From the NCBI GenBank assembly GCA_026874595.1, contig CM049317.1, positions 52,781,618-52,845,617 on the forward strand: a stretch of DNA of 64,000 bases, read 5' to 3'. Position 1 is the stretch's first letter. Each line of letters begins with the position of its first letter. This document shows, piece by piece, positions 360-57,688 of this stretch. A program made the position numbers and the translations under genes. The notes beneath the pieces were generated by a model. It did not search any database. It was not told the DNA's origin and saw only the letters and a program-made list of their open reading frames with translations. This stretch comes from Sipunculus nudus (lineage: Eukaryota > Annelida > Sipuncula > Golfingiida > Sipunculidae).

Positions 360-503
360 GAGGTAGCCTACCCGAGCATTATCATTGGTACAGCGACAAC
401 CCAAGGTCAGAGGACGGCTGTGCGGTGCTGAAGAAATACAGAAGTGGCTATTACTGGGAGTCTGTGAATTGTACAGAAACACACGCAACTATCTGTTTGA
501 AAG
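360..503 (+). CDS. Gene A exon: C-terminal half of CTLD2
   Basis: The exon encodes the second half of a CTLD with the cysteines in the expected order: GCAVLKKY, then VNCTET, then TICLKG. NCT is a possible N-glycosylation site. The acceptor is the AG at 358-359 and the donor is GTGAAA at 504. Both junctions are phase 1 and the length is 144 bp, as in gene B (14679-14822), whose product is nearly identical here. At the usual sugar-binding position the sequence reads NPR rather than EPN or QPD. Confidence 0.82.
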
Positions 504-56100: not shown

Positions 56101-57688
56101 TATCACATCACCATAAATACAGTTTTCTGTATATAACTAGATAAACATATTTATATAAAATACCTTAACAATTGAAATGGTGGTCAACAAAATCATAACG
56201 TTGGTTTTTATTTCTATATTGAATGGCATTATGTTGTATCCTTTATGGTCTGTTTAAAATAGGAGATGAGGTGAGCGAAACGAACTTTTCTTTAGCAGGT
56301 ATTTCTATATATTGCTACAGAGTAAAGTCAGGATACCATTCTCATGTGTCACCCACGAATTTTCCTTCTCTTGACTATCATCTTTAAATGTGTCTGTCAT
56401 GTGAATTATAAAGTTGCTCTCATTGGTCAATGATAAACTTCAATCTTGAATAGTCCTGAAAACCCCGTAAACAATGCGGACTCAAACAGACCGGACCGGA
56501 CTACTAAGGATCAGTCCTGAAATATTAAAAAAAAAATGATATAGCCAGAATCGCTCAGGACTGTGCCCGGGACAGTCCCGATCTAGCAGTCTGGTCCGCC
56601 AAGTGCCGAAAACATAACGGACCGGAGTGGATTCAAGTTGGGTCTGATCTCGTCCCGTCTGCTCTGTGTGAGGCTAATATACTGATTGTTTTACTTTTAA
56701 AAACTGCTTATCCCTTATATCTTACAATTATTTGATTGTAATTCTTTTACAAACATCTTATCTCATATATCATACAATTATTGATTGTTATTTCTTTTAT
56801 AAATTGCTTATCCCATGTATCATTCAATCATTGTGTATATTTCATTTTTGTAAACTGTATCATTGAGTTGTTTGTATTTCTTTTGATAAATTGCCTATCC
56901 TATATATCCATGTAGTACCTACACTGATTCTCTAGAAAAGGTAGTGTACATTTAATAAATTTAGTGTGTACTATAAGTATATACAGTGTGAATACATGAC
57001 CCATGGGTCGTGGCGCTCAGATGAAGAGGATAAGTTCATGGCTAAATTTTCACTTGGCTCTTAGCCATAACAGAAAAGGATTGACAAATGACATAATTAC
57101 CAGTAATGTTCAAGTTTGCAAAGAAGAAATCAAGTAAATCTATTAACTTCCTGAGTAGTATACGAAAAATAAAAAAAAATGAAATATTAGTTTGGTTTAT
57201 GTGTTAACTGGCCGGTGTACATCTCAATCTCGAGAAAATGACGTACAAGACACTGGCTCCCTTTTGACGCGCCGTAATCCCATTGGACTCTCCAAACGAG
57301 TCGACCGATCGTACCCCCGCCAGGTTTTTTGCTTATCAAAGAACAGGCATGTAAGTAACCAGGAAATCTGTAATAATGAAGAAACACTACTTATGATTTC
57401 CTCAACTGGTAAATTCTGGCGAAACCACAGAGTTGTAGACCTAAATTAATGTATACATAGGTATTGGTATGGATATGGTTACTGCAGTTACCACTTTGAA
57501 GAAATGGTTGTAACTCTGATATGTGCTCACGTGTTTGTTTACAATAAACGTCTTACAATAACGCATATATTGCTTTATATGTGATTCAATGTTAATAACT
57601 GACTGACGTGTCGTTTTACAGACTCCAAGATGACTCTGACTCGGGTGTATCTGAAGCTGATTCTCAGAGCACGGATTCGAGTAACTGA
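46858..57688 (+). CDS. Gene C: two-CTLD type I membrane protein with acidic tail (signal exon not found)
   Basis: Eight exons join in frame: 46858-47109, 47975-48097, 48956-49216, 49628-49786, 51758-51787, 52237-52387, 55350-55460 and 57622-57688 (stop TGA), about 383 residues after an unseen start exon. The order is CTLD1, CTLD2, a very short stalk, a TM helix, then an acidic Ser-rich tail in two exons. All splice sites are GT-AG and phases match gene B. Differences from B are a 15-bp longer CTLD2 end, a single 30-bp stalk exon, a different TM exon and an unrelated tail. Introns carry several transposon remnants. AATAAA at 57826-57831 is a likely polyadenylation signal. Role inferred: cell-surface recognition protein. 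Confidence 0.85.
47975..48097 (+). CDS. Gene C exon: C-terminal half of CTLD1
   Basis: A 123-bp phase 1/1 exon after TTTTAATTCACAG with donor GTAAGT. It encodes [34 protein letters not shown]. It is highly similar to gene B 12805-12927 and has three CTLD cysteines. Confidence 0.87.
48956..49216 (+). CDS. Gene C exon: N-terminal half of CTLD2
   Basis: A 261-bp phase 1/1 exon after TTTTATTACAG with donor GTAAGT. It encodes [45 protein letters not shown] and [11 protein letters not shown]. It is the clearest CTLD exon in the window, with the WIGL-type core present as WVGI. Confidence 0.9.
49628..49786 (+). CDS. Gene C exon: C-terminal half of CTLD2
   Basis: A 159-bp phase 1/1 exon after GATATTTCAG with donor GTAGGT. 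It encodes [30 protein letters not shown] and [14 protein letters not shown] stands where QPD/EPN is usual, and NPR in A and B, so ligand preference may differ. The exon is 15 bp longer at its end than in A and B. Confidence 0.88.
50318..50340 (+). repeat. Long G homopolymer in a gene C intron
   Basis: About 21 consecutive G, able in principle to form a G-quadruplex. Confidence 0.9.
50909..51068. mobile_element. 160-bp Tc1/mariner (pogo-like) MITE in a gene C intron
   Basis: It starts CAGTGAAACCTCGTTGTGTC and ends with the complement GACACAACGAGGTTTCACTG. CAGT ends with CCTCGTT are typical of pogo/Tigger-like elements, which insert at TA; the element sits within a (TA)n tract. It is too short to encode a transposase. 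Confidence 0.8.
51069..51200. repeat. (TA)n microsatellite
   Basis: A TA tract directly right of the MITE, with a short palindrome (AGAATATATATATATATTCT) at its end. Confidence 0.95.
51758..51787 (+). CDS. Gene C exon: short stalk
   Basis: A 30-bp phase 1/1 mini-exon between TTTGCAG and GTGAGT, encoding PAPVISTTT, a Pro/Thr-rich spacer that may carry O-glycans. It lies directly before a (TA)n microsatellite that starts in the donor intron. Confidence 0.6.
51803..51895. repeat. (TA)n/(TG)n microsatellite
   Basis: Begins 16 bp after the gene C stalk exon donor. Confidence 0.95.
52237..52387 (+). CDS. Gene C exon: juxtamembrane and transmembrane segment
   Basis: A 151-bp exon, phase 1 in and phase 2 out, after a strong pyrimidine tract (TTCTTTCAG), with donor GTAACA. 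It encodes [19 protein letters not shown], the helix [18 protein letters not shown] and [10 protein letters not shown]. The juxtamembrane Cys could make a disulfide dimer. The helix shows no real similarity to those of A and B, although the exon phases agree. Confidence 0.8.
52900..53690 (+). repeat. Degenerate tandem repeat with AGGTCA modules
   Basis: Two to three units of roughly 300-350 bp share CAGTATGTCTGTCTGTTTGT, CCTCAATT, CACAGTTT and CTTCACAAACT. GGTCAAAGGTCAAGG opens them. It lies in the intron between TM and tail exons of gene C. Confidence 0.6.
53546..53564 (+). promoter_or_regulatory. Triple AGGTCA array (DR1 plus DR0)
   Basis: AGGTCA at 53546-53551, one spacer A, AGGTCA at 53553-53558 and AGGTCA at 53559-53564. 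A DR1 is the classical site of RXR, HNF4 and COUP-TF nuclear receptors. A related copy (AGGCCA, A, AGGTCA, AGGTCA) lies at 52904-52922. Both belong to a repeat, so function is unproven. Confidence 0.35.
54031..54780 (+). repeat. Dispersed repeat TTTTAGCTCAGCTGAC family, copy in gene C
   Basis: It begins TTTTAGCTCAGCTGACTTTT and ends GACAGCTGAGCGTAATGGCC plus CATGGGTCA. It is shorter than the 16.46-kb copy. It too lies in the TM-to-tail intron and in the same orientation. A run of about 20 C is at 54241-54260. Confidence 0.7.
55350..55460 (+). CDS. Gene C exon: cytoplasmic tail, first part
   Basis: A 111-bp exon after TTGTGTTTCAG, phase 2 in and phase 2 out, with donor GTAAGT. It encodes [20 protein letters not shown] and [14 protein letters not shown]. 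It is acidic, with a YY pair in KKYYADDE but no ITIM. Confidence 0.72.
55518..56674. mobile_element. 1.16-kb inverted-repeat element in the last intron of gene C
   Basis: The left end GCCGCATACAGAGCGGACGA plus GACGAGAT matches the complement of the right end with four mismatches in 28. A second left-type end lies at 55615. The inside is partly palindromic (CCCGGG, CCGGACCGGAC) and carries a (TA)n run. No coding frame, so it is non-autonomous. Confidence 0.6.
55941..56055. repeat. (TA)n microsatellite
   Basis: A TA run of over 100 bp broken only by ATGTATG. Confidence 0.95.
57622..57688 (+). CDS. Gene C exon: end of cytoplasmic tail (last exon)
   Basis: A 67-bp coding part after TCGTTTTACAG, entered in phase 2 and ending TGA at 57686-57688. 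It encodes [20 protein letters not shown] plus Asn. Dense Ser next to Asp/Glu gives several casein-kinase-2-like sites. AATAAA follows 138 bp after the stop. Confidence 0.72.

What the first reader, a model, noticed from the sequence alone, without database searches (positions are those of the whole stretch)
360..57688. CTLD receptor cluster with constant outside and unrelated tails
Genes A and B share almost identical CTLD2 exons, stalk exon lengths and TM exons. B and C share CTLD1/CTLD2 exon sizes. Yet the tails are unrelated: Ser/Thr-rich in A, short with Lys in B, acidic Ser-rich in C, almost absent in D. All tails join at the same phase-2 site just after the membrane. This is what is expected if tail exons are swapped or replaced while the ectodomain is kept, as in paired immune receptors. 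No canonical ITIM or ITAM is present, so signalling would use another route. The joined models are mine.
Basis: partly seen in the sequence, partly recalled or inferred. Interest (0 to 1): 0.75.

Follow-up and report, generated by a model that had tools for sequence, protein, structure and literature searches.

The report
Lectin receptors with two tail exons
In a cluster of duplicated lectin-like receptor genes, three sister genes each carry the same two spare tail exons in the same order, so tails that looked unrelated were two different exons compared across genes, and each gene may switch its tail by splicing.

Summary
The window holds genes A (part), B and C of a two-CTLD, single-pass receptor family. 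Exons and phase-2 tail joins are real; no ITIM or ITAM. No gene D was found. "Unrelated tails" fails for A and B. A, B and a sister gene Z upstream of the window each carry two possible last exons in one order: type 1 (A 2243-2366, B 17981-18095) and type 2 (A 3044-3206, B 18604-18772). C is older; its tail has no detected relative, but that search is weak. Best reading: tandem duplicates in which an alternative last exon can switch the tail; use of both exons is inferred, no RNA seen. In passing: a Mutator-like transposon, 52 places found, carries intronless two-CTLD genes related to this family.

The parts
360..503 (+). gene A, CTLD2 second exon (acceptor 360 or 363)
1032..1082 (+). gene A, stalk exon 1
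1171..1221 (+). gene A, stalk exon 2
1521..1653 (+). gene A, membrane exon
   Evidence: homologous to B 17981 and to an exon of Z (0 of 2000 shuffles for A-B and A-Z)
3044..3206 (+). gene A, tail exon type 2
   Evidence: 39 of 53 residues as Z; 2 places in the genome search
12264..12509 (+). gene B, CTLD1 first exon
12805..12927 (+). gene B, CTLD1 second exon
14279..14539 (+). gene B, CTLD2 first exon
14679..14822 (+). gene B, CTLD2 second exon
15222..15278 (+). gene B, stalk exon 1
15407..15457 (+). gene B, stalk exon 2
15955..16087 (+). gene B, membrane exon
   Evidence: 0 of 2000 shuffles against A and against Z; first of 107 candidates
   Evidence: first of 40 candidates; 0 of 2000 DNA shuffles; 7 of 20000 protein shuffles
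46858..47109 (+). gene C, CTLD1 first exon
47975..48097 (+). gene C, CTLD1 second exon
48956..49216 (+). gene C, CTLD2 first exon
49628..49786 (+). gene C, CTLD2 second exon
51758..51787 (+). gene C, stalk exon (30 bases, low confidence)
   Evidence: borders and frame only
52237..52387 (+). gene C, membrane exon
   Evidence: 55% match at C9:58472807-58472947
55350..55460 (+). gene C, tail exon 1 (acidic)
   Evidence: borders and frame; no relative found
57622..57688 (+). gene C, tail exon 2 to stop
   Evidence: borders and frame; no relative found

Best explanation
A tandem family of type I membrane receptors, each with two C-type-lectin-like domains, a short stalk, one membrane segment and a short tail. 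In A, B and Z two alternative last exons follow the membrane exon; choosing the first (with its own stop and a poly-A-like signal) or skipping to the second would give one ectodomain two different tails. After duplication CTLD2 was held nearly constant by selection, while CTLD1's first exon, stalk, membrane segment and both tails drifted. Shown: homology of each tail type across the three genes, shared order and phase, the conservation pattern. Inferred: that both exons are used; that CTLD1 is the variable recognition part; that signalling, if any, needs no tyrosine motif.
For: Type 1: DNA 0 of 2000 shuffles for A-B, A-Z and B-Z; 0 of 1768 other candidate exons in 263.6 kb reach the scores; first of its gene's candidates in 3 of 3 genes (a tie in A with a longer reading of the same exon). 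All start CAG/AAG/TAG|C-AAA, all end at an aligned stop, indels add up to 9 bases. AATAAA overlaps the stop in A and Z, AATATA in B (signal meaning recalled). Type 2. Type 1 and type 2 of one gene score only 15-24 against each other. Exons align between Z, A and B, introns mostly do not. CTLD2 121/130, 124/130, 119/130 against CTLD1a 48/80, 46/80, 54/82 residues.
Against: No RNA data. Type-1 exons are weakly kept: 15 of 32, 11 of 37 and 10 of 34 residues, dN 0.46 and dS 0.65 for A-Z, so one type could be a relic. B's type 2 is frame-shifted at its end against Z and only 14 of 49-55 residues alike. The nearest pair changes by segment: A-B in CTLD1a, Z-B in membrane segment and in the CTLD2 tree (95/92), Z-A in type 2, which leaves room for exchange between copies. 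Neither tail type was found in C or Y1-Y3.
Confidence: 0.7

Rival explanations
1. Only one tail type is used; the other is a decaying relic of an older gene form.
For: Low residue conservation of type 1 and high dN relative to dS in A-Z; frame shift at the end of B's type 2.
Against: Both types stay open with acceptors in 3 of 3 genes; type-1 stops align and its indels keep the frame.
Confidence: 0.22
2. Tail exons are swapped between genes while the ectodomain is kept, as in paired receptors.
For: C's tail is unlike type 2 of A and Z (11700 of 20000 shuffles reach its score) and unlike type 1; no relative found, though C's C9 sister keeps 85% of CTLD2a and 55% of the membrane exon.
Against: A, B and Z keep both tail types in place; no activating or inhibitory motif; the searches behind 'no relative' have low power.
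Confidence: 0.06
3. CTLD2 likeness of Z, A and B is kept by gene conversion, not selection.
For: Z-A fourfold sites 22 of 28 identical in CTLD2a against 30 of 57 in CTLD1a, CTLD1b, CTLD2b and membrane exons, p = 0.03.
Against: Z-B p = 0.36, A-B p = 0.62, no correction for three tests; Z-A CTLD1b is 40 of 40 residues at dS 1.5.
Confidence: 0.2

Closest known systems
Receptors with tail isoforms made by splicing, for example NKp44 (PMC13072323; listing and start of abstract only)
   Same: One ectodomain, several isoforms; different tails of NKp44 are recalled, not read.
   Different: Here the two tails are separate last exons conserved over three tandem genes, without ITIM in the tails tested, in a genome I guess to be a bivalve's; isoforms are not observed.
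Paired receptors such as SIGLEC11/SIGLEC16 and CD300A/CD300C (PMC5701461, PMC12447643; listing and start of abstract only)
   Same: Receptor genes with similar outside parts.
   Different: There opposite signals come from different genes; here each of three genes holds both tails and no such motif is found.
Expanded bivalve C-type lectin families (PMC10140915; matching passages and start of abstract only)
   Same: Large CTLD repertoires; presence of membrane segments and number of CTLDs are recorded there.
   Different: The passages seen do not treat tail exons; that this genome is bivalve is my guess.
Macrophage mannose receptor CTLDs (PDB 5xts)
   Same: Best solved relative of B's two CTLDs, E 5.5e-11, two stretches.
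   Different: Many CTLDs and other domains (recalled); WND residues missing in the family here.

Membership tests
C-type lectin-like domain proteins (PF00059) | profile match over cut-off | tested here: met
   B 59.7 and C 62.4 bits, cut-off 22.6
Classical calcium-dependent sugar-binding C-type lectins | WND in the last strand (meaning recalled) | tested here: not met
   absent in 8 of 8 family CTLD2s, present in 3 of 3 canonical CTLDs of the genome
Classical calcium-dependent sugar-binding C-type lectins | EPN or QPD tripeptide in the long loop (meaning recalled) | tested here: inconclusive
   EPN in Y2 and QPD in C9; neither in A, B, Z, C, Y1, Y3 (8 genes)
Paired activating/inhibitory immune receptors | ITIM in one form, ITAM or charged membrane residue in the other | tested here: not met
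   no motif in 7 of 7 tails tested; charges only towards segment ends, a shared Asp at the outer edge of A, B, Z; type-1 tails of A and Z not in that run
Paired activating/inhibitory immune receptors | similar ectodomains in separate genes with non-homologous tails | tested here: not met
   A, B, Z share both tail types; C against C9 untested
Paired activating/inhibitory immune receptors | shared ligand, opposite signals | not testable with these tools
   needs experiment
Genes with alternative last exons | two terminal exons joinable to one upstream exon | tested here: met
   both types phase-2 with acceptors in A, B, Z
Genes with alternative last exons | both used in transcripts | not testable with these tools
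   no RNA held

The most novel reading that the evidence does not exclude
Genes of this two-CTLD receptor family were captured, without introns, by a Mutator-like DNA transposon and are kept there as working cargo: two or three receptor genes beside a transposase frame at 52 or more places on 17 contigs. The cargo would be selected, for example as tail-less surface decoys of the host receptors in this cluster.
Probability: 0.3. Interest if true: 0.75.

Novelty: new member of a known kind. Interest (0 to 1): 0.42.

Why it matters
If both last exons are used, one receptor gene can send two kinds of inner tail, which would do in one gene what paired receptors do with two; three sister genes keep that arrangement, so RNA can test it at once. 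It also shows how a single-copy reading can turn two spare exons into 'unrelated tails'. The transposon-borne relatives, if expressed, would be receptor genes spread by a DNA transposon in an animal.

Tried and rejected
That rested on comparing it with type-2 tails only, on a translated search of the region and on a genome search with one hit, itself. The draft also wrongly said that no family member has EPN or QPD (one search shows two).

Looked for gene D: CTLD models, hydrophobic-segment scan, Pfam on two guesses. A-B type-2 homology from that pair alone was weak: 4 of 2000 protein shuffles, DNA score 27 against 27 elsewhere in the window; settled with Z. Gene conversion: one of three pairs. 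Shared DNA downstream of Y2 and Y4 is not clearly coding. Genome searches with short tails have low power; one search also gave a weak match at C12:52417693 with three stops, E 0.017, not followed.

Full report
Where it is. No call names the species; 'bivalve' is a guess from recalled chromosome number and size.

Anatomy. Gene A enters the window in its second CTLD2 exon (360-3206), gene B runs 12264-18772, gene C 46858-57688. The joined models have AG/GT borders, no inner stop and end in a stop in 3 of 3 genes. A's other three CTLD exons lie just left of the window. First exons with signal peptides were not found. Pfam reports Lectin_C for B and C, two stretches each at the loose limit used. 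No fourth CTLD gene was found in the window.

Relatives. In the 199,617 bases left of the window lie five more members in the same orientation: Y1, Y2, Y3, a Y4 fragment and Z; Y2's first CTLD1 exon holds a stop. A more distant CTLD match lies on the plus strand at C12:52683296, and a two-CTLD gene on the minus strand near C12:52750000. Z has its CTLDs 50-53 kb and its type-2 tail 41 kb left of the window. C is closest to a gene on C9: CTLD2a 85%, membrane exon 55%. In a 13-row CTLD2 tree A, Z and B form a clade (100/100), with Z next to B (95/92).

Tail type 1. The exon at B 17981 has counterparts in A at 2243 and in Z, 5' of type 2 in each: SKVIEYLTRLYPQKKDINNTF..., SKLKKFCGCFQRTCSQQNDINNTS..., SKVTEFATCLSFSRKDTSGR... 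DNA shuffles reach the pair scores 0 of 2000 times for A-B, A-Z and B-Z, and none of 1768 other candidate exons in the 263.6 kb reaches the protein scores. A looser test of B's exon against whole introns gave 1 of 1000 for A and 83 of 1000 for Z, though the Z alignment falls exactly on the exon start. Stops align; indels total 9 bases. An AATAAA overlaps the stop in A and Z, an AATATA in B. Conservation of the residues is low: 15 of 32, 11 of 37, 10 of 34. So A, B and Z each hold type 1 then type 2.

Other tails. Y1 and Y3 share a short tail of their own. C's two tail exons resemble neither type and give no other match in the genome. Genome searches with short tails also missed known homologues, so this absence is weak.

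What varies. Between Z, A and B the first CTLD1 exon has 48/80, 46/80, 54/82 identical residues, CTLD2 121/130, 124/130, 119/130; Fisher p from 6e-6 to 2e-11, treating residues as independent. Most introns no longer align; a stretch around type 1 aligns between A and Z. Membrane segments are 15 to 20 of 32 identical. Gene conversion has support in one of three pairs.

Function. No ITIM, ITAM or seven other patterns in 7 of 7 tails tested. WND is missing in 8 of 8 family CTLD2s and present in 3 of 3 canonical ones; EPN remains in Y2 and QPD in C9. I infer that A, B, C and Z do not bind sugar by the classical site. A role in immunity is inferred from the family only.

Side observation. At 52 of 53 transcribed places of the 441-type frame (a few of these places are shorter) a MULE transposase match (PF10551) lies 1504-1526 bases away, on 17 contigs; 43 of the 53 transcribed transposase matches have a 607-residue open frame. 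All nine fetched copies, taken by best score, keep the 441 frame; identity 94.2-99.7%, dN/dS 0.47 over 36 pairs. Lectin and transposase frames lie on opposite strands in 7 of 7 copies where both test motifs were found (2 of 9 undecided). The 441-residue protein aligns with both CTLDs of B over 246 residues, 69 identical, E 2e-35; Pfam reports only its second CTLD. It ends in a hydrophobic stretch without a tail. Only this frame was read in full. In the CTLD2 tree the transposon frames fall on the family's side of the canonical CTLDs, on long branches that the program warns about. A MULE survey (PMC6446971, passages) has no 'lectin'; among listed rows of three searches (14 of 14, 12 of 77, 12 of 72 papers) no title or abstract start describes such an element. 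The element's ends were not reached.

Noticed in passing
L019-L024, L026-L028; e.g. G000:C11:167022-172073: A Mutator-like DNA transposon carries two or three intronless lectin-receptor genes related to this cluster beside an open transposase frame; 52 of 53 listed places of the third gene have the transposase at a fixed distance.
   Followed up: partly
window 60003-63907: Direct duplication of about 2.3 kb (parts 96-99% identical), each half with a 22-base tandem array.
   Followed up: no
window 28005-31131: Tandem duplication of about 1.6 kb, parts 91-98% identical, between genes B and C.
   Followed up: no
window 32571-33875: Tandem array with a unit of 50-51 bases.
   Followed up: no
window 19753-23850: Inverted repeats with arms up to 207 bases at 93%, about 2.2-3.9 kb apart; perhaps a mobile element.
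   Followed up: no
C12:52737257-52737331, left of the window: In gene Z a fragment of a CTLD2 first exon is duplicated between CTLD2 and the membrane exon.
   Followed up: no
C12:52749636-52751181, minus strand: A more distant two-CTLD gene on the opposite strand between Z and A.
   Followed up: no
C12:52417693-52417785, minus strand: Weak match (E 0.017, three stops) to A's type-1 tail, possibly a decayed relative.
   Followed up: no
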